The notes under the pieces are model-generated. The model saw only the letters and a list, made by a program, of their open reading frames with translations. It searched no databases and was not told the origin of the DNA. 38,624 nucleotides of DNA, from positions 1 to 38,624 of the forward strand of contig QYYE01000003.1 in NCBI GenBank assembly GCA_003589585.1, in the 5' to 3' direction. This document shows, one piece after another, positions 10,901 through 21,430 of this stretch; within the stretch, counting starts at the first letter, position 1, and the number at the start of each line of letters is the position of its first letter. The translations under genes and the position numbers were made by a program. Source of the DNA: Candidatus Bathyarchaeota archaeon. Its GTDB lineage: Archaea > Thermoproteota > Bathyarchaeia > Bathyarchaeales > Bathycorpusculaceae.

Positions 10901-12235
10901 ATGCGTAAACAATTATTCACATTATTGATCGCAGTTTTGAGAGCAAGCGGTTTAAGTACATTGAAGTGTCACGCGCTCGCTCCAGTATCGACAGAGCCAG
11001 CCATTGTTCCACCACTAATCAAACGATGGATAAGATTCCATCAACTTCTTCTTTTGAAATATAGGGGCTTTCACTTCGGTGGTAGGAACTTGGATAAAAC
11101 ATCCAAAATGTTTTTCGGATGTTTAGCTATTTTCGCCATTTTCGCTTTTTCAATTTTGCCAAGCGGTCTTGGTCAGTCAGCTTCTGTTGGACCTGAAATC
11201 GGTATCTTTTATTATGTTTGGTATGATGCAAATTCTGAAGAGTCATGGGACAATTCAATGATTGTTGATACTCCAATATTGGGCTTTTATGACAGCAGTA
11301 ATTCAACTGTGATTGGCCAGCATCTTTCCTGGATTGAAGCGTTAGGAATAGACTTCGTTATTGTTTCCTGGTGGGGTAACTGTGATGATTTTGGAAGGTT
11401 TACTGATTTAGCTGCTAAACAGGTTTTTGAGACGGCGCGATACACGAATAGTAACTTGAAGTTTGCCATTATGGTAGAGCCTTATCCTCTGGACAGCGAT
11501 TCTTACAATTACGCCGAAATCTACAGTCACATACATGACACCTTTGTTACGCCCTACCCCTCGCTCTACTACATTGACCCTCAACCAGTGATTTGCTTTT
11601 ACAACGACCCAGGGCACTATCCAAGCTTGACCGATAACGGAGCCATACCTTTAGATGAACGTTTCAATACTATTCTGGTCGGGCAGGAACCCTATACTCA
11701 ATGGATATACACTGACTTGATATCAGGTGGTTCTAGACCAAACCAAGTCAGCGTGACCCCTCGGTACGATGAATCTCGCCTTCCCGATAGACCCGGGAGA
11801 GTGCGAATTGACGTTCGCTTAAACCAGGGAGTGTATGGAATGGAGTGGAACCGAGCTATACAGCTTTGGCATGAAGGAAAAATCAATACTGTCCTGATTA
11901 GCACTTGGAACGAGTTTTACGAAAGAACAGCAATTGAGCCCCATTTTGATGCAACCGCAGCTAACAAAGACCCTTACCTGCTATATGTCAGAACAAAATA
12001 TTTCATTGAACAGATTCATAAGCCCTTTTCTTCACCCTCTCCATCACAGACATCCTCATTGAATACTTTAACGTCAACTTCTCCATCGCCGACTCATTTG
12101 CCATACACGCCTACAACCTCCACTATCCCAGAGTTTCCTTACTCTCTAGTAGCAACCGCCATAGTATTCCTTGCAACCACGGCATTGTGTGCTAAGCTTA
12201 GAAAACAAGTGCAGAAACCAAAAACACAAACTTAA
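10901..12235 (+). CDS. secreted GH99/GH71-like glycoside hydrolase with C-terminal IPEFP anchor
   Basis: The catalytic part begins near residue 98 with IGIFYYVWYDAN and GIDFVIVSWWGN, and ends with ISTWNEFYERTAIEP; these are the signature segments of GH99-like (endo-alpha-mannosidase-like) proteins. The N-terminus is unusual: one hydrophobic stretch at 5-14 and a second, signal-like one at 70-92 ending SGLGQSAS. A TTG at 11090 with GGTGGTAGG before it would give a normal signal peptide directly, so the true start is uncertain. The C-terminus has a Ser/Thr/Pro-rich linker (about 375-415), then IPEFP, a hydrophobic helix and a basic tail, resembling the PEF-CTERM-type signal processed by archaeosortases. 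Likely a cell-surface enzyme acting on mannosides. It is transcribed alone, convergent with the thermosome gene. Confidence 0.75.
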   Translation: MRKQLFTLLIAVLRASGLSTLKCHALAPVSTEPAIVPPLIKRWIRFHQLLLLKYRGFHFGGRNLDKTSKMFFGCLAIFAIFAFSILPSGLGQSASVGPEIGIFYYVWYDANSEESWDNSMIVDTPILGFYDSSNSTVIGQHLSWIEALGIDFVIVSWWGNCDDFGRFTDLAAKQVFETARYTNSNLKFAIMVEPYPLDSDSYNYAEIYSHIHDTFVTPYPSLYYIDPQPVICFYNDPGHYPSLTDNGAIPLDERFNTILVGQEPYTQWIYTDLISGGSRPNQVSVTPRYDESRLPDRPGRVRIDVRLNQGVYGMEWNRAIQLWHEGKINTVLISTWNEFYERTAIEPHFDATAANKDPYLLYVRTKYFIEQIHKPFSSPSPSQTSSLNTLTSTSPSPTHLPYTPTTSTIPEFPYSLVATAIVFLATTALCAKLRKQVQKPKTQT

Positions 12236-14313: not shown

Positions 14314-14871
14314 TTATCTTGCCATTTCCCTGCATGACTCAGCACAGCGGCGGCAAACGCTGGCGCACTCTTTCATGAAATCATCCTCGAATCTGTCGCA
14401 GGTGTCAGCGCATTCATCACAAATATCAGCGGTTATGCCGCATGTTTGCGGATAATAGGTTGAGTTCCTTAGCATGAAGTCTGCGTTTGTGTTGCATATT
14501 TTTGCGCAGTCCATAAGGAGGTTTAGATGCTCAATTTCCGCGTGTTTTCCGCCGATGCTTAGGCATCTTACGGTGGTTTCAGTGCATGTTTGGTAGCAAT
14601 CAAGGCAATCCCTCAGGCATTCCTGAACCTCCTCACTGGTCATGATTTCGGATTGCTGAATTCTCTCCAGTTCCTCCATGGTTCCTGACATTCTGCCAGC
14701 CATCGGCGATTGGTTTTCGCCTGGCCAAGACTCATCTGATTCCTCTTCTGTTTGCGCTTCAGCCTCCTCCATGTATCTTGGTTCATCTATACTTCTCATA
14801 TCTCTTGACATGAATCCTTCCAAGAAATCAGGTATCTTTTTCTCGCTTCCGTTTTCGAATGGTTTTGACAC
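14314..14871 (-). CDS. Cys-rich four-helix copper-binding-type protein (DUF326-like)
   Basis: The 185-residue protein has an acidic, low-complexity N-terminal half (about 1-70) and a C-terminal four-helix domain holding 15 cysteines, spaced as CxxC and CxxxC in every helix (for example CLRDCLDCYQTC, CDECADTC and CASVCRRCAESC). This is the pattern of DUF326/Csp-like proteins that bind many Cu(I) ions inside the bundle. It likely stores or buffers copper; a ferredoxin role is unlikely because the Cys spacing is helical. No signal peptide is visible, so it is cytoplasmic. The frame extends to an ATG at 14949, but AGGAGGTGA four bases before the GTG at 14871 is an unmistakable ribosome-binding site, so I start there. 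Confidence 0.8.
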   Translation of the reverse strand: MSKPFENGSEKKIPDFLEGFMSRDMRSIDEPRYMEEAEAQTEEESDESWPGENQSPMAGRMSGTMEELERIQQSEIMTSEEVQECLRDCLDCYQTCTETTVRCLSIGGKHAEIEHLNLLMDCAKICNTNADFMLRNSTYYPQTCGITADICDECADTCDRFEDDFMKECASVCRRCAESCREMAR

Positions 14872-15178
14872 ATCTTCACCTCCTTCTGAAACAGCTCCGA
14901 TAAATTCCCTTTCAGGAAAAATGCAGATTCGCTTTTGGGAAATAAGCACGGATTCTGTGGTTAATTACATATTTCCTGTTGTTTGCCCCAGCAAAAAGAT
15001 TGACCAACTTGGGCAAAGACATCAGTCTTTGTTGGCTTGTTGCAGGAATTCATCATAAACCTAGTTTGACCATCATTTAAGAATATGTGACTGTAATTCT
15101 ACGCCAACAGCTTTCGCTAATTTCATAGCAAAGATGAAAAAGAGTAAAAAAGGCGTTGCCTAGGAAATATTTGATTGC
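14872..15178. other. intergenic region, promoter of the Cys-rich gene
   Basis: These 307 bases hold no gene I can support. The minus strand contains AT-rich boxes near 14960-14980 (ATATGTAATTA) suited to a promoter for the Cys-rich protein at 14871. The right half, up to the stop of the GH130 gene, has only scattered A/T runs. No palindrome that looks like a metal-responsive operator stood out. Confidence 0.4.
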
Positions 15179-16072
15179 TTATTTTTTGGGCAGCAACTCG
15201 TTGAGCTCATAGCTTGCACCGCAAAGAACCTTGTCCGCTCCGCCATAGTACACTATGACTTGGTCGTCTAATTGCACGTTGCCGCAGCTGAACACTACGT
15301 TAGGTACAAGACCGACGCATTCATAGCCTTCGCATGGTGTTAGTATGGGTTTTTCTGAGCGGTAGAGCACTTTCTCTGGGTTGCTCTTGTCAAGCAAGGC
15401 TGCTCCCAGCGAGTAGTGTTTATCGTGGTCTACGCCGTGGTAAATGAAGAGCCAGCCCTCGTTTAGCTCTATGGGTGTTCCTGCCGCGCCAATCTTTAAG
15501 CTGTCCCACATCTTGTCTCGCGGTTCCATGATGGATTTGTAGCCGTACCATTGCTTGAGGTCTTCTGAGTAAGCTACGCAGATGCTTGGTTCAATACGGT
15601 GAAACATTACGTATTTGCCGTCAACTTTTCTTGGAAGAATCAATGCATCCTTGTTGCGTACGCCTGGAAAGGGCAAGATTCTTTCTTTCCAATTCCATTC
15701 TCGGTTTAGGAAATCTCTAAGGTTGATGGATGTTAGCGAGATTTGGAAGATTATCGGGTAATCGTGGTTTCGGAACGCTGTGTAAGCCATAAGAACCTGG
15801 TCATCAATGATTGAAAGGCGCGGGTCTTCACATCCGTCTCTTTCTGCATGGTTGATTGGGTTAAAAATTGGCGTGTCCAACCTTTCTCTTATGGTAAAGC
15901 CGTCATTTGAGGTTGCGTAGCCGAGCCTTGAGACGTAGTCTTCGCCTTGTGCACGGTAAACAATGTGTACTAAACCGTTGCCGTAGACTGCTGCTGCGTT
16001 AAACACAGCTTGCGACTCCCAGGCATTGTTCTTTATTGGTTTTAATATGGGGTTATGTTCAAAGCGTTTCAT
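15179..16072 (-). CDS. GH130-family beta-mannoside phosphorylase-like protein (first copy)
   Basis: The 297-residue five-bladed beta-propeller enzyme family cleaves or makes beta-mannosidic bonds by phosphorolysis. Seen: RFEHNPILKPI at the N-terminus, DGCEDPRL (proton donor/phosphate region), MFHRIEPS, IYHGVDHDKHYSLGAALLD, and VFSCGN with YYGGADKVLC at the C-terminus. Length and motifs are normal for PH1107/GH130 proteins. The frame extends to 16099, but TATA GTTTATATGT at 16111-16120 would start transcription near 16088, and GAGGGG precedes the ATG at 16072, so I start there. It diverges from the GT4 gene and is paralogous to the copy at 18957, with strongly shared sequence through all motifs. 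Confidence 0.87.
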   Translation of the reverse strand: MKRFEHNPILKPIKNNAWESQAVFNAAAVYGNGLVHIVYRAQGEDYVSRLGYATSNDGFTIRERLDTPIFNPINHAERDGCEDPRLSIIDDQVLMAYTAFRNHDYPIIFQISLTSINLRDFLNREWNWKERILPFPGVRNKDALILPRKVDGKYVMFHRIEPSICVAYSEDLKQWYGYKSIMEPRDKMWDSLKIGAAGTPIELNEGWLFIYHGVDHDKHYSLGAALLDKSNPEKVLYRSEKPILTPCEGYECVGLVPNVVFSCGNVQLDDQVIVYYGGADKVLCGASYELNELLPKK

Positions 16073-16110
16073 TATCCCCTCTCCCTCTAAAAACACCATT
16101 CATTACGCCG

Positions 16111-16120
16111 ACATATAAAC
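16111..16120 (-). promoter_or_regulatory. TATA box of the first GH130 gene
   Basis: GTTTATATGT on the minus strand, about 40 bases before the ATG at 16072. It shares the 136-base divergent spacer with the GT4 promoter. In the same spacer TGTGA (16151-16155) and TCACA (16170-16174) form a loose inverted repeat that could be an operator, which is weak evidence. Confidence 0.5.
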
Positions 16121-16208
16121 ATCATGATTACGTATGTAAAAAACTCCCTTTGTGACTGTCATGCTGCAATCACATGTGCTTATGACCCGCCGAACCTCTT
16201 TATAAGAC

Positions 16209-17429
16209 GTGATTGGTTCTTTGGCAAAGTCTATACTTGGCACTCCTCCATTAACTAGCCTCAAAGAAGTTGCTTACGTAAGTACCTATCCTCCAAGGAA
16301 ATGCGGTATAGCAACTTTCACAGCCGACCTGGTTAATTCAATCAGTCAGCTCAACAAGCTTAGGAACCAAAAAGTCATTTCAATCGATGGACGACGGCTT
16401 ATCAAACAGTTTTACGGAAGAGTTCAGCATAAAATAGGACGTGACAATATTGAAGACTACGCTCTGATGGCGGATTTTGTCAACCGGTCTTCGGTGAATG
16501 TAGTTAACATTCAGCATGAGTTTGGAATTTTCGGCGGGAAATACGGGGAGTACATTTGCACTTTTTTGGAGAGGCTAAAAAAACCTGTCTCGACCACTCT
16601 GCACACTGTGCTTCCTAATTTTGAGCCTAAAGCCCTGAGCGTTTTTAACAGGATTGTTGAGCACAGTTCTGCTATAGTTGTTTTAAATGAAACTACCCGC
16701 TCCCTGCTTAACAAGTATGATGTCCCAAAAGAAAAAGTGAAGCTGATTCCACATGGCTGCCCTGATGTTCCACTGGTCAACAGCTCCGAGTTAAAGGCTG
16801 CTTTGGGCTTGAAAGATAAAATTGTGCTGACTACTTTTGGTCTTTTAAGCAGGGGAAAAGGCATCGAGCATGTTATTGAAGCGCTTCCAGAGATTATTAA
16901 GGAAGAGCCAAGAATAGTCTACTATGTTCTCGGCGTGACTCATCCTCAGGTGAAGAAGACTGAGGGTGAAGCTTACCGAAACAGACTTTTGAGGTTGGCT
17001 AAGAACCTTGGGCTTCGAAGGCACGTTAGGTTTCTAAATCGGTTTCTGTCGAAAGCTGAGCTTATGAATTACCTGCAAGCCACCGATGTATATATCACGC
17101 CATACCTTTCTCCTAACCAAGTTAGCAGCGGTACACTATCTTACGCTTTGGGCGCTGGTAAAGCAATCGTTTCTACCCCTTATCTTCATGCTAAAGAAGC
17201 GTTGTGTGAAGGTCGGGGAATATTTTGTGACTTTAACAATTCAGCCTCAATAGCCGACCGCATACTGGACATAATTGGAAATAAGCCGTTGCGGAGACTT
17301 CTGGAGCAGAGAGCCTACAATTACAGTCGGCAATTTACATGGCCTTTGGTTGCAAAAATGTACCTTGAACTTTTTGATGAACTGACTAGAGCCTCTGAGG
17401 AGGGATGGTCGCGAGGCTTCCGCCTATAA
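16209..17429 (+). CDS. GT4 glycosyltransferase of the GH130 locus
   Basis: The protein has up to 406 residues. The N-terminal domain opens with VAYVSTYPPRKCGIATFTADL, the glycine-loop of a GT4 subfamily often found beside GH130 genes. The donor domain has LIPHGCPD, TTFGLLSRGKGIEHVIEALP, YVLGVTHP and TPYLSPNQVSSGTLSYALGAGKA. In the last, the usual EX7E glutamates are replaced (Asn/Gln and Ser), as in this subfamily. TATA TTTATAAG (16199-16206) lies directly before the GTG at 16209, so the real start may be the TTG at 16221 or later; the domain itself begins near 16263. It overlaps the next gene by 25 bases and likely builds the glycan that the GH130 enzymes handle. Confidence 0.83.
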   Translation: MIGSLAKSILGTPPLTSLKEVAYVSTYPPRKCGIATFTADLVNSISQLNKLRNQKVISIDGRRLIKQFYGRVQHKIGRDNIEDYALMADFVNRSSVNVVNIQHEFGIFGGKYGEYICTFLERLKKPVSTTLHTVLPNFEPKALSVFNRIVEHSSAIVVLNETTRSLLNKYDVPKEKVKLIPHGCPDVPLVNSSELKAALGLKDKIVLTTFGLLSRGKGIEHVIEALPEIIKEEPRIVYYVLGVTHPQVKKTEGEAYRNRLLRLAKNLGLRRHVRFLNRFLSKAELMNYLQATDVYITPYLSPNQVSSGTLSYALGAGKAIVSTPYLHAKEALCEGRGIFCDFNNSASIADRILDIIGNKPLRRLLEQRAYNYSRQFTWPLVAKMYLELFDELTRASEEGWSRGFRL

Positions 17430-18529
17430 AATTTGATTACTTAGAATCTTTCACGGATGACACTGGCGTATTCCAACATGCCAAGTATTGTGTTCCTAAA
17501 AGAAACGAGGGCTACACTACTGACGACAATGCTCGTGCATTAATTGCCTGCACCATCCATCACCGCCTAAAAAATGATCCGCGAACAGTACGTCTGGCGA
17601 ATATTTACTTGGCTTTCCTAAATCACATGCAGAAACCTGACGGCAACTTCCATAATTACCTAAGCTATGAACGTTCCTTCCTAGACATAGATGGATCAGA
17701 CGACTGCATGGGACGTGCCCTTTGGAGCTGCGGCTGTGTCGTAAACTCAACTTTACCATTGGACATGAAGATGGTTGCTAAGGAAATTTTTGATAAGGGT
17801 CTGCCTTGGGTTTTTAAGTCCACTTCGCCTAGATGTTATGCTTTTGCCCTTTTGGGGCTCTACCAGTATTACCTTGCCTCTGCTGACAACAATTTGAAAG
17901 TAAACATTGGGAACTTGGCTGATAGCCTTGTCCAACATTACCAGGATGAAGCCAGAGGTGATTGGCGATGGTTTGAGCCGCACCTCACGTATGACAACAC
18001 TAGGTTGCCTCAAGCGCTCTTTGGAGCCTACATGATTGTTGGAAAATCAAAATACCTAGACGCAGCTAAGGAATCTATGGATTTTCTGCTTAAAACTCAA
18101 ATGGTGAACAGCAAATTCGTGCCCATAGGTAACGATGGCTGGTACAAGCGGGGAGGTAAACGCGCCTTTTATGACCAGCAACCATTGGAGGCTTCAGCGA
18201 TGGTTGAGGGAAACATCGACGCTTTTTACGCTACAGGTAATGAACGGTACGCTAGAATGGCTAAGGTTATTTTTCAGTGGTTTTTAGGCAAGAACACGCA
18301 AAATGTGATGGTTTACAATCCGAAAACCGCTGGATGCTTTGATGGCGTTACTCCTGAAAAGGTGAATATGAATCAAGGTGGAGAATCCTCTATATCTTAT
18401 CTCATAGCACGTTTGAAATTAGAAGAGTTACGGTACTATGTCGCTGAAAGCAAAAGACAGCGTGATAGTTCAACAAAAAAAGCGGTTGGAAAGCCCATGC
18501 GGGCAGTTAACTCTCAGCTTGGGAGATGA
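17405..18529 (+). CDS. six-hairpin glycosidase-like (alpha/alpha barrel) protein
   Basis: The 374-residue protein begins inside the GT4 gene. GYTTDDNARALIA near 36-48 is the marker of this family, which is usually found next to, or fused with, GT4 proteins of this type. Repeated helical hairpins with W/Y/D-rich turns run throughout (for example ALFGAYMIVGKSKYLDAAKE, NIDAFYATGNERYARMAK), consistent with an (alpha/alpha)6 toroid. The reaction is not known; the fold suggests glycan hydrolysis or binding. The 25-base overlap with GT4 implies coupled translation and a stoichiometric partner. The C-terminal tail is basic (KRQRDSSTKKAVGK). Confidence 0.7.
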   Translation: MVARLPPIKFDYLESFTDDTGVFQHAKYCVPKRNEGYTTDDNARALIACTIHHRLKNDPRTVRLANIYLAFLNHMQKPDGNFHNYLSYERSFLDIDGSDDCMGRALWSCGCVVNSTLPLDMKMVAKEIFDKGLPWVFKSTSPRCYAFALLGLYQYYLASADNNLKVNIGNLADSLVQHYQDEARGDWRWFEPHLTYDNTRLPQALFGAYMIVGKSKYLDAAKESMDFLLKTQMVNSKFVPIGNDGWYKRGGKRAFYDQQPLEASAMVEGNIDAFYATGNERYARMAKVIFQWFLGKNTQNVMVYNPKTAGCFDGVTPEKVNMNQGGESSISYLIARLKLEELRYYVAESKRQRDSSTKKAVGKPMRAVNSQLGR

Positions 18530-18533
18530 TATA

Positions 18534-18947
18534 ATGTGTGAACCTATGCTTAAAATTCGTGACATAATGTGTAAAAAAGTGATTACCGCAAAAGAGGACA
18601 CTTCAATTCAGGAAGCTGTCCAGATACTCAACGACCGACATGTCGGATCAATAATAATTATTGATGATGAAGAAAAATGCAGAGGAATATTTACCGAGCG
18701 AGACGCTATTCGCATCATTGCTCATAAGTTTGCGCTGGACCAGCCGTTAAGCAGTGTAATGAGTAAGCACGTGGTTGCTGTTTCACTTGAAGCTTCCTTT
18801 GATGAAGCAAAAAGACTAATGCTTTCTCACAACATACGCCACCTGCCCGTTACGGACCAAACAGGAAAACTTATCGGTCTTTTTTCGCTGAGAGCATTCT
18901 TTGACGAGATTTTAGGAATAAAAACTCCAATACCAAGCTCAACCTAG
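18534..18947 (+). CDS. CBS-pair protein (adenine-nucleotide sensor candidate)
   Basis: The 137-residue stand-alone tandem CBS protein starts MCEPMLKIRD. The first CBS motif runs about 10-65 (VITAKEDTSIQEAVQILNDRHVGSIIIID, then GIFTERD), the second about 75-130 (VVAVSLEASFDEAKRLMLSHNIRHLPVTD, then GLFSLR). CBS pairs usually bind AMP, ADP, ATP or SAM and regulate a partner. The longest frame begins at 18438 inside the previous gene, but the ATG at 18534, four bases after that gene's stop with GGGAGATGAT before it, gives the natural start. Placed between the glycosidase-like and GH130 genes, it may tie glycan turnover to the energy state; that is an inference. Confidence 0.85.
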   Translation: MCEPMLKIRDIMCKKVITAKEDTSIQEAVQILNDRHVGSIIIIDDEEKCRGIFTERDAIRIIAHKFALDQPLSSVMSKHVVAVSLEASFDEAKRLMLSHNIRHLPVTDQTGKLIGLFSLRAFFDEILGIKTPIPSST

Positions 18948-18956
18948 TGAATTTCA

Positions 18957-19856
18957 ATGGAACGCTTTGCTGGTAACCCTATTTTGCGCCCGATAGAAGA
19001 GCATGCTTGGGAGTCAAGAGAAGTTTTCAACGCTGCTGCAATCTGCCTAAACAGCAAGGTCCATCTTCTCTACCGCGCACTTGGCAACGATAACATCTCA
19101 AGACTTGGCTATGCAACTTCCTCTGACGGCTTTAACATAGATGAGCGTTTTCCAGACCCGGTTTTTGAGCCAGCCACTGAAAGCGAAAAAGACGGCTGTG
19201 AAGACCCAAGGATAACCGAAGTGGATAACCAGCTTATCTTAACTTACACTGCCCTCAGAGAATATAGCCACTTGCAAGTTTACCAGGTTTCACTGAGCAC
19301 CCTCTCAAAAGACGATTTCATCAATAGACAGTGGAAATGGGGTAAACGGCGCCTGCCTTTTCCTGGCATACGTAATAAAAACGCGGTTGTTTTTCCACAG
19401 AAGGTAGGTGGCAGATTTGTTATGCTTCACCGTGTTGAACCTGACCTCTGCATTGCTTTCTCTGACGACCTAACACGGTGGTGTGATGTAATGGCTGTTA
19501 TGGGACCGCGGGCTGACAGCTGGGATAACTGGAAAATCGGAGTGGCTGGTACGCCGATAAAAATTAACGAGGGGTGGCTGGTTATTTACCACGGCGTTAG
19601 TGTAGAGAGAGTGTATTTTCTGGGCATCGCGTTGCTTGACAGTGATCACCCCGAGCAGGTTCTCTACCGCCCCAAAGAGTACATTTTGTCGCCGAAAGAG
19701 GATTATGAACGATTTGGCAAAGTTCCCAACGTCGTGTTCAGCTGCGGCAATGTGATTTTAGACGATAAATTGTTTGTCTACTATGGGGGAGCGGACAGTG
19801 TTCTCTGCGTTGCCACCTTAGGTTTAGATAAGCTCTTGTCTTTCATCCGAAGATAA
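18957..19856 (+). CDS. GH130-family beta-mannoside phosphorylase-like protein (second copy)
   Basis: The 299-residue paralogue of the gene at 15179 shares MERFAGNPILRPIEEHAWESREVFNAAA, DGCEDPRI, MLHRVEPDLCIAF, IYHGVSVERVYFLGIALLD and YYGGADSVLC. Catalytic-region residues are intact. It follows the CBS gene by nine bases and ends the GT4-six-hairpin-CBS-GH130 operon. Having two copies on opposite strands around a glycosyltransferase suggests distinct acceptor lengths or one synthetic and one degradative direction, which is not provable from sequence. Confidence 0.87.
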   Translation: MERFAGNPILRPIEEHAWESREVFNAAAICLNSKVHLLYRALGNDNISRLGYATSSDGFNIDERFPDPVFEPATESEKDGCEDPRITEVDNQLILTYTALREYSHLQVYQVSLSTLSKDDFINRQWKWGKRRLPFPGIRNKNAVVFPQKVGGRFVMLHRVEPDLCIAFSDDLTRWCDVMAVMGPRADSWDNWKIGVAGTPIKINEGWLVIYHGVSVERVYFLGIALLDSDHPEQVLYRPKEYILSPKEDYERFGKVPNVVFSCGNVILDDKLFVYYGGADSVLCVATLGLDKLLSFIRR

Positions 19857-19862
19857 CAAGCG

Positions 19863-20924
19863 TTATTGCGCTTTTATGATGTGGTAGCCCGATGCCTTGC
19901 GCAGCCTATTCATAACCGCCAAACCAAGCCCCTCAGCAGGCACACCCTCAGCAATAATCACATCCACTCCTTCCGCGTCAACTTCTCTGAGCAGGCGAAA
20001 CAGGTTTCGGGCAATTGCTGCCAAGTTGAAGCGGCTGCCCAGAGACGCCACCACGTCTGCTTTGTAGGCGGTTTGGGTTTCGTCGGTAGCTAAGATGCCA
20101 ACTTTCTTGCCTTTGCCCAAGTGGTATTGCGTTAACTCTTTCACTTTATCCATAACGGCTGGAACTGACCCTTCCACCAAAATCACCTCAGCCTTAGGTG
20201 CATAATGCTTATGCTTCATACCGGGCGAGCGGATTTTTTCCATAGGCAACTCTTTTTCGGCTTCAACAAAAGGATGCAGCCTAACCTCGCCCAGAACCCT
20301 CTTTAGAGCTTCAAAGGATATTCCTCCTGGTCGAAGAAGCACTGGAGGGTCAACGCTCAAGTCCAAAACCGTAGATTCCACGCCGATGCGGGTGGCTCCG
20401 CCGTCGAGGATGGCGTCGATTCTGCCATTGAGGTCTTCAAAGACGTGTTTGGCGTTGGTTGGGCTGGGTTTGCCCGCGAGGTTTGCGCTTGGAGCAGCAA
20501 TGGGACGACCGCTTTCTATGATTAACGCTAAGGCTACTTTGTGCTGCGGCATCCTCACAGCAACCGTGTCCAAACCCGCCACTGTCACATCAGGGACTGT
20601 TTTTGAACGCTTAAACACAAGAGTTAGCGGTCCAGGCCAAAACTCCTTCATCAGCAACAATGCTTTCTTAGGCACCGTCTCCGCCAAAGTGTCGACTTCT
20701 TCTGCGCTTGCCACATGAACGATTGGTGGATTATCTAGCGGTCGCTTCTTGGCTTCAAAAAGCGCCAAAACAGCCTGCGGGTTTAGGGCGTCGGCTCCTA
20801 AACCGTAAACTGTCTCTGTGGGAAACGCTACCAGTCCGCCTTTTTGGATGATGTCTGCTGCGGTTTTGATTTTTGCTGGGTCTGGGTTTTCTGAATCAAC
20901 CTTTAAGACAAGGGTTTGTTTCAT
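19863..20924 (-). CDS. sua5: L-threonylcarbamoyladenylate synthase (Sua5/YrdC/TsaC)
   Basis: This makes threonylcarbamoyl-AMP from threonine, bicarbonate and ATP for the t6A modification of tRNA. The YrdC domain shows GLVAFPTETVYGLGADAL, KRPLDNPPIVHV, PAPSANLAGKPSPT-like APSANLAG, and GVESTVLDL with LLRPGGIS; the C-terminal Sua5 domain follows the PGMKHKHYAPKAEV linker and ends with IIAEGVPAEGLGLAVMNRLRKAS. Length from the ATG at 20924 is 353 residues, normal for archaeal Sua5. The open frame continues upstream without a stop into the second half of a GNAT gene, so a GNAT-Sua5 fusion is possible. No clear ribosome-binding site precedes 20924, which leaves fusion versus internal start open. 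Confidence 0.93.
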   Translation of the reverse strand: MKQTLVLKVDSENPDPAKIKTAADIIQKGGLVAFPTETVYGLGADALNPQAVLALFEAKKRPLDNPPIVHVASAEEVDTLAETVPKKALLLMKEFWPGPLTLVFKRSKTVPDVTVAGLDTVAVRMPQHKVALALIIESGRPIAAPSANLAGKPSPTNAKHVFEDLNGRIDAILDGGATRIGVESTVLDLSVDPPVLLRPGGISFEALKRVLGEVRLHPFVEAEKELPMEKIRSPGMKHKHYAPKAEVILVEGSVPAVMDKVKELTQYHLGKGKKVGILATDETQTAYKADVVASLGSRFNLAAIARNLFRLLREVDAEGVDVIIAEGVPAEGLGLAVMNRLRKASGYHIIKAQ

Positions 20925-21430
20925 TATTGTTGCCTTTTTTAGTTCAAGCACTACAGAGGTCTCGACTTGTCGCTCTGGGATATTCCAGTATCTTCTTAGA
21001 AGTTTATTCTTTTCCTCGGTTGAAACCAGCCTAAAGCCGTGTTTCTCGTAAAAGCGGATTGCCCAGGTTGCTGCTTGCCAAGTTCCCACCAAAACCCTCT
21101 CAGTCTTAACCAAGCCGAGCAGATATTTGAGGAGTTTTTCTCCAAGTCCCCTCCGCTGGTGACTTGTCAACACGTAGGCATGCCTGATGAGCGTACATCG
21201 TTAACTGGTTGAATGCCCATGACTGCAATTAAGATGTTGTTTTCTATGTAGCCGTAAAATTGCACTCCGCTCCCTACTTCTTCGGCAAGCTCTTGTGCTG
21301 GCATGTAGGGTTCTCTCCACCTGTCCGCTGGAATCTTGCCCCTGTAAGCAATGGCGGCGTCGTTTACCACGTTCAGGATGGCGTCGAAATCGGCGGCAGT
21401 TAGTTTGCAAATCATGAAAGAATCAGGCAT
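20925..21430 (-). pseudogene. GNAT N-acetyltransferase broken by a one-base frameshift
   Basis: The first half reads MPDSFMICKLTAADFDAILN to GIQPVNDV, then shifts. Adding one base between 21195 and 21194 restores TLIRHAYVLTSHQRRGLGEK, the acetyl-CoA loop (QRRGLG) and the family end GTWQAATWAIRFYEKHGF through NIPERQVETSVVLE. The restored protein is a complete GNAT of the type common in bacteria and archaea. With one missing base it cannot be made as one chain. The second half stays open and runs in frame into Sua5. Either the gene is recently dead, the sequence has an error, or translation shifts. It follows the PAC4-like gene by 13 bases. Confidence 0.85.

What the first reader, a model, noticed from the sequence alone, without database searches (positions are those of the whole stretch)
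15179..19856. Divergent GH130 - GT4 - six-hairpin - CBS - GH130 locus
Two GH130 phosphorylase-like genes flank a GT4 enzyme, a helical-barrel glycosidase-like protein overlapping it, and a stand-alone CBS pair. GT4 could build a mannoside and GH130 break it by phosphorolysis, while CBS binds adenine nucleotides. This would be an energy-gated internal glycan store, unlike known glycogen systems. Family assignments are from motifs; the system-level idea is inference.
Basis: partly seen in the sequence, partly recalled or inferred. Interest (0 to 1): 0.6.

Follow-up and report, generated by a model that had tools for sequence, protein, structure and literature searches.

The report
Split glycosyltransferase–barrel–mannoside phosphorylase operon
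An archaeal gene cluster pairs two predicted beta-1,2-mannoside phosphorylases with an unusual sugar-transferase and an unnamed barrel enzyme that are fused into one protein in many bacteria, so it is a widespread but untested sugar-handling module, not a proven energy store.

Summary
All five genes exist where stated (corrections: the conserved CBS start is 18534, so the barrel/CBS overlap is probably only apparent; GT4 may start at 16221). The window lies in a Bathyarchaeota-type genome. All five genes are kept together in 12 genomes of the genus; in the class sample 53 of 58 barrel-gene loci have a GH130 within 3 kb. The core is wider than proposed: GT4-like + alpha/alpha-barrel + GH130 spans many phyla, and in 41 of 80 retrieved loci GT4 and barrel are one fused protein; the window has the split form. 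CBS is an archaeal add-on. Both GH130s are closest to characterised beta-1,2-mannoside phosphorylases and keep the key residues, so phosphorolysis of beta-1,2-mannosides is likely. The barrel family is unnamed. The GT4-like enzyme lacks the canonical E-x7-E motif. 'GT4 builds, GH130 breaks' is stereochemically inconsistent for an ordinary retaining GT4, unless this variant inverts. Energy storage and CBS gating are unproven; beta-1,2-mannan storage (Leishmania mannogen) and a GH130-GH130-GT4 cluster (Thermoanaerobacter) are already known. New variant of a known kind.

The parts
15179..16099 (-). GH130a, predicted beta-1,2-mannoside phosphorylase, divergent from the operon
   Evidence: PF04041 199 bits; best solved relatives 9fj8 (1,2-beta-oligomannan phosphorylase) 1.7e-74 and 7fip (beta-1,2-mannobiose phosphorylase) 5.4e-71; D92, K150, R168, K202, H221 conserved
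16100..16208 (.). Divergent intergenic region between GH130a and GT4 (the conserved GT4 start may be TTG 16221)
   Evidence: ORF coordinates, sequence, alignment of GT4 N-termini
16209..17429 (+). GT4-like glycosyltransferase of a subgroup with Q304-x7-Y312 in place of E-x7-E
   Evidence: PF00534 67 bits; alignment to MshA; Q 42/42 and Y 41/42 in an alignment of the window with 41 fused homologues; of 15 other distinct GT4-type proteins of the same genome, 14 have Glu at the position of Y312
17405..18529 (+). SHG: alpha/alpha-barrel protein of an unnamed family; fused to the C-terminus of GT4 in many bacteria and some archaea
   Evidence: AF2 and Foldseek, family scans, fusion in 41 of 80 loci
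18534..18947 (+). CBS-pair protein (ORF from 18438; conserved start 18534)
   Evidence: PF00571 102 bits, two domains; 22-row alignment with invariant G51, T54, D57 in CBS1
18957..19856 (+). GH130b, second predicted beta-1,2-mannoside phosphorylase
   Evidence: PF04041 205 bits; 9fj8 3.5e-69, 7fip 2.2e-68; same active-site residues except D151 to N

Best explanation
The locus is the archaeal, split form of a widespread cytoplasmic module made of a GT4-like transferase, an alpha/alpha-barrel enzyme and a GH130 phosphorylase. GT4-like and SHG work as one unit (fused in many bacteria) that makes and/or trims an intracellular mannose-containing oligosaccharide. GH130a and GH130b are beta-1,2-mannoside phosphorylases that remove terminal mannose with phosphate, giving alpha-mannose-1-phosphate without spending ATP; the two copies may divide the work by chain length, as Teth514_1788/1789 do. 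The alpha-mannose-1-phosphate then enters phosphomannomutase or GDP-mannose metabolism; the reverse (elongation) is also possible because the reaction is reversible. CBS is a lineage-specific adenine-nucleotide-type regulator added in Bathyarchaeia. Shown: gene content, conservation, fusion, GH130 active-site residues, lack of E-x7-E, barrel fold (predicted). Inferred: catalysis, substrate, direction, regulation.
For: GH130s closest to the Teth514-type enzymes (NF052550 is the best NCBIfam model at 317 and 299 bits) with conserved catalytic Asp, the Lys described as beta-1,2 determinant (PMC4599007) and basic residues at the phosphate site. 53 of 58 SHG loci have GH130 within 3 kb, 12 on both sides; SHG/GH130 co-occurrence is 53 both, 2 SHG only, 27 GH130 only, 169 neither (genomes are related, so the Fisher p of 1.8e-31 overstates). 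GT4 lies directly 5' of SHG in all 30 first-fetched loci. GT4-SHG fusion in 41 of 80 loci from many phyla. No secretion signal is apparent in the N-termini (by eye). PGM/PMM-family proteins and sugar nucleotidyltransferases exist in the genome, one nearest a mannose-1-phosphate guanylyltransferase model but below its cut-off (225 of 440 bits).
Against: No activity data. The GH130s fall below the NCBIfam equivalog cut-off (450 bits). The beta-1,2 Lys column was invariant in every GH130 I aligned, so no beta-1,4 enzyme served as an internal control. 27 class genomes have GH130 without SHG. In the bacterial loci no consistent further mannose-pathway neighbour was found.
Confidence: 0.6

Rival explanations
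1. One reading: GT4 makes a mannan store, GH130 mobilises it, CBS senses AMP/ATP.
For: Conserved operon including CBS in Bathyarchaeia; CBS1 keeps the G-x-x-T-x-x-D nucleotide motif; mannogen precedent in Leishmania (PMC8950772); no convincing GT5 glycogen synthase in the genus (PF08323 scores at GT4-like level).
Against: Retaining GT4 against beta-specific GH130; CBS not core (15 of 80 loci, none in bacteria; lost in L013 and L021); GT35-like proteins present in 19 of 22 SHG-bearing congeners; no polymer shown.
Confidence: 0.15
2. GDP-mannose / alpha-Man-1-P salvage route, as proposed for Thermoanaerobacter: GH130s recycle mannosides and a GT4 uses the resulting GDP-Man to make an unrelated alpha-mannoside.
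For: Teth514_1785-1796 cluster with two GH130, GT4 and mannose-1-phosphate guanylyltransferase (PMC4264767); resolves the stereochemistry without a special GT4.
Against: No guanylyltransferase, transporter or GH5 in this locus; the tight GT4-SHG fusion plus GH130 argues for a shared substrate; GT4 lacks E-x7-E.
Confidence: 0.25
3. Compatible-solute or free-oligosaccharide turnover: GT4-SHG builds or trims a small mannoside (solute or glycan-lipid by-product) and GH130 recycles it.
For: Small soluble enzymes; nearest GT folds include MshA, GlgM, BshA, TreT and sucrose-phosphate synthase, which act on small acceptors.
Against: Fold similarity says little about acceptors; no solute genes in the operon.
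Confidence: 0.25

Closest known systems
Thermoanaerobacter sp. X-514 Teth514_1788/1789 beta-1,2-mannoside phosphorylase cluster (PMC4264767)
   Same: Two GH130s of the same kind, with a GT4 and inferred alpha-Man-1-P supply
   Different: That cluster has ABC transporter, GH5 and mannose-1-phosphate guanylyltransferase genes; no SHG-type barrel or CBS is described; its GT4 is annotated as GDP-mannose-dependent alpha-mannosyltransferase
Leishmania mannogen system, GT108 dual glycosyltransferase-phosphorylases (PMC8950772)
   Same: Intracellular beta-1,2-mannan turned over via alpha-Man-1-P by enzymes with a GH130-like fold
   Different: GT108 is a separate family and was not among the 18 PDB relatives; no GT4-SHG unit; no storage polymer shown here
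[quoted passage not shown] architecture from general knowledge, PMC10834661 for the cyclisation domain)
   Same: A transferase, an alpha/alpha-barrel domain and a phosphorylase-type domain acting on 1,2-linked chains
   Different: Different families, membrane-bound, glucan; analogy only
Xanthan GumH (GT4, retaining) and GumI (GT94, inverting beta-mannosyltransferase) (PMC13104830)
   Same: GT-B enzymes; GumI shows that a GT-B enzyme using GDP-alpha-Man can make beta-mannosides without a canonical catalytic base near the reactive centre
   Different: The window enzyme hits GT4 Pfam models; its stereochemistry is unknown

Membership tests
GH130 beta-1,2-mannoside phosphorylase | GH130 catalytic domain | tested here: met
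   PF04041 199 and 205 bits against cut-off 26
GH130 beta-1,2-mannoside phosphorylase | Catalytic Asp, Lys beta-1,2 determinant, basic phosphate-site residues instead of Glu | tested here: met
   D92, K150, R168, K202, H221 aligned with Teth514_1788/1789; roles from PMC4599007, exact mapping of phosphate residues is my inference; no beta-1,4 enzyme in the alignment as control
GH130 beta-1,2-mannoside phosphorylase | NCBIfam equivalog cut-off NF052550 (450 bits) | tested here: not met
   317 and 299 bits: same subgroup, not certified equivalogs
GH130 beta-1,2-mannoside phosphorylase | Phosphorolysis of beta-1,2-mannobiose/oligomannan | not testable with these tools
   needs enzyme assay
GT4 glycosyltransferase | GT4-type domain and GT-B fold | tested here: met
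   PF00534 67 bits; Foldseek of a fused homologue to MshA, GlgM, PimB', BshA
GT4 glycosyltransferase | E-x7-E motif | tested here: not met
   Q304 and Y312, conserved in the fused family; 14 of 15 other distinct GT4-type proteins of this genome keep the second Glu
GT4 glycosyltransferase | Retaining mechanism | not testable with these tools
   needs product NMR
Known six-hairpin glycosidase families (GH127, GH88, GH76) | Pfam gathering score | tested here: not met
   window protein 20.2 bits (GH127) and 15.8 (GH88), both below cut-off
AGE superfamily epimerase/isomerase | Conserved catalytic histidines | tested here: not met
   only one His (H25) is invariant across 29 SHG proteins, while acidic residues (D40, D41, E191, D257, E262, D313, E327) are; the requirement for a His pair is from general knowledge
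CBS nucleotide sensor | Two CBS domains with G-x-x-T/S-x-x-D motif | tested here: inconclusive
   CBS1 has invariant G51/T54/D57; CBS2 lacks the Asp, so one canonical site at most
Mannogen system (GT108) | GT108 family enzymes | tested here: not met
   no GT108 structure (6Q50) among PDB matches

The most novel reading that the evidence does not exclude
The Q-x7-Y GT4-like enzyme with its barrel partner is an inverting beta-mannosyltransferase with a built-in trimming domain, so that GT4-SHG plus GH130 form a prokaryote-wide intracellular beta-1,2-mannan cycle (a bacterial/archaeal mannogen), to which Bathyarchaeia added CBS control.
Probability: 0.13. Interest if true: 0.85.

Novelty: new variant of a known kind. 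Interest (0 to 1): 0.5.

Why it matters
A three-enzyme unit conserved from Bathyarchaeia and DPANN archaea to Chloroflexota, Acidobacteriota, Planctomycetota and Myxococcota has no assigned function that I could find. Bacterial fusions tie an unnamed barrel family to a GT4 variant lacking its signature motif, and GH130 neighbours point to beta-1,2-mannosides. It makes testable whether prokaryotes keep an internal beta-mannoside pool, whether GT4-like enzymes can make beta-mannosides, and whether annotations of GH130 in these archaea as mannan degradation are misread intracellular metabolism.

Tried and rejected
(1) Programmed frameshifting at the GT4/SHG overlap to give a fusion in archaea: rejected, because the frame relation differs between congeners (+1 or -1), some relatives have no overlap, and a Shine-Dalgarno-like GGAGG followed by ATG, GTG or ATH at one conserved position explains it better. 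(2) SHG as an AGE epimerase: fold similar, but no conserved His pair. (3) Locus as a replacement for glycogen: GT35-like proteins co-occur and GT5 hits are at GT4-like level, so inconclusive to negative. (4) Shared further neighbours in bacteria: 87 flanking proteins, no family in more than 3. (5) Papers on a GT4-barrel-GH130 module: none found in 9 searches of the open library; an absence there proves little. (6) A beta-1,4 GH130 control for the Lys column could not be obtained from printed alignments.
Full report
OBSERVATION. The five ORFs are present at the given coordinates and their families were confirmed with Pfam, except the barrel protein ('SHG' below), which scores under every curated cut-off. 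An AF2 model from 29 homologues (pLDDT 86, pTM 0.88) is an alpha/alpha barrel; the closest solved structure is YPO2471 of unknown function (E 2.6e-14), followed by cellobiose 2-epimerases and related AGE folds, GH9 and GH76. Homologous CBS proteins start at window 18534, so SHG and CBS probably do not overlap; GT4 and SHG overlap by 25 nt.

CONSERVATION. In a 251-genome sample of the class, SHG occurs in 55 genomes and GH130 in 80; 53 have both. Of 58 SHG loci, 53 have GH130 within 3 kb and 12 are flanked on both sides, as in the window. Those 12 genomes (the window's included), all of the same genus, have the full order GH130a(-) GT4 SHG CBS GH130b. Two congeners (L013 = G189, L021 = G139) lack CBS and GH130b at the locus but keep GH130a-GT4-SHG. 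Other families have GT4-SHG-CBS-GH130 with one GH130; a deeper set lacks CBS (L038, L047, L051, L062) or has GH130 convergent (L043, L048).

WIDER DISTRIBUTION AND FUSION. In the 80 best loci GT4 is adjacent to or fused with SHG in 71, fused in 41, with GH130 nearby in 54 and CBS in 15 (many loci are contig-limited, so these are lower bounds). Fusions are mostly about 740-820 aa (frames stop to stop) and occur in Acidobacteriota, Chloroflexota, Planctomycetota, Myxococcota, Fibrobacterota, Rhodothermota, DPANN and a Methanocellales-labelled MAG. In a maximum-likelihood SHG tree the window sits in the split Bathyarchaeota clade, and the fused/split state needs three changes. Organism labels are record titles of MAGs and a few may be misbinned (e.g. 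the 'Asgard' L072, which sits among Bathyarchaeota). The four fused proteins scanned match no NCBIfam family above its cut-off, and their barrel half reaches no Pfam cut-off. An AF2 model of the Anaerolinea fusion gives two confident domains of uncertain mutual orientation (pLDDT 87.5, pTM 0.55), matching GT4 enzymes and YPO2471.

GH130. The best PDB relatives of both proteins are 1,2-beta-oligomannan phosphorylase (9fj8) and beta-1,2-mannobiose phosphorylase (7fip), with a large margin over beta-1,4 enzymes (that these two PDB entries are the Thermoanaerobacter enzymes Teth514_1788/1789 is my reading of the names). In a 118-sequence alignment the catalytic Asp, the Lys reported as beta-1,2 determinant (PMC4599007) and basic residues at R168, K202 and H221 are conserved in nearly all. 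GH130b of the genus mostly has N for D at position 151. The mapping of phosphate-binding residues is inference, and the NCBIfam equivalog score is not reached.

GT4-LIKE. The E-x7-E motif of GT4 (its Glu279 lies near the donor in modelled GumH, PMC13104830) is Q304-x7-Y312 here (alignment to MshA). Q is present in 42 of 42 and Y in 41 of 42 sequences of the window-plus-fused alignment. Among 15 other distinct GT4-type proteins of the same genome, 14 have Glu at the second position. Donor binding is therefore probably altered. This matters because a normal GT4 retains configuration and gives alpha-mannosides, while GH130 cleaves beta-mannosides; GT-B enzymes such as GumI (GT94) do make beta-mannosides from GDP-Man. 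Whether the window enzyme inverts is unknown.

CBS. CBS1 keeps the nucleotide motif (G51, T54, D57 invariant in 22 proteins) and CBS2 lacks the Asp. Adenine-nucleotide binding is plausible, not shown.

METABOLIC CONTEXT. The genome holds two PGM/PMM-type proteins, one of which scores as archaeal GlmM, and several nucleotidyltransferases, one nearest a mannose-1-phosphate guanylyltransferase model but below its cut-off. GT35-like hits over the cut-off occur in 19 of 22 SHG-bearing congeners and 1 of 10 without SHG, so the module does not simply replace alpha-glucan metabolism. GT5 matches in the genus are at the level of GT4-like proteins.

CONCLUSION. A real, conserved and functionally unassigned module whose GH130 step is well predicted. 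The energy-gated store is one possible reading, weakened by stereochemistry and by the accessory status of CBS. Precedents (Thermoanaerobacter cluster, PMC4264767; Leishmania mannogen, PMC8950772) place it as a new variant of a known kind.

Noticed in passing
L007, L010, L011, L013, L014, L016, L017, L021, L052 (SHG start region): In several congeners the SHG frame has no ATG/GTG/TTG between the upstream stop and the conserved N-terminus. A GGAGG-like Shine-Dalgarno precedes an ATT/ATC/ATA codon in most, at the position where L009 has ATG and L006 has GTG, suggesting non-canonical AUH initiation, perhaps coupled to GT4 translation.
   Followed up: partly
window 14314-14949 (-): A Cys-rich four-helix, Csp1/DUF326-like protein (below cut-offs) lies next to GH130a and is conserved there in congeners (L049, L050, L052, L057, L059, L063-L065).
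   Followed up: no
window 19863-21430 (-): GNAT acetyltransferase pieces lie in two frames (21167-21430 and the N-terminus of the Sua5 ORF), while relatives have separate upstream and Sua5 ORFs; probably a frameshift in the window or a sequence error.
   Followed up: no
L036:1405-2451 (-), L037:1501-2379 (-): GH130 paralogues that have lost the conserved basic and phosphate-site residues (G, L and N at positions 168, 202 and 221 of GH130a); possible hydrolases or inactive forms.
   Followed up: no
window 10901-12235 (+): A GH99-like protein (31.7 bits, cut-off 33) with an N-terminal hydrophobic segment and a C-terminal Ser/Thr-rich linker plus hydrophobic segment.
   Followed up: no
PDB 7tem (YPO2471): The closest solved relative of the barrel family is an uncharacterised exported Yersinia protein; function unknown.
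   Followed up: no
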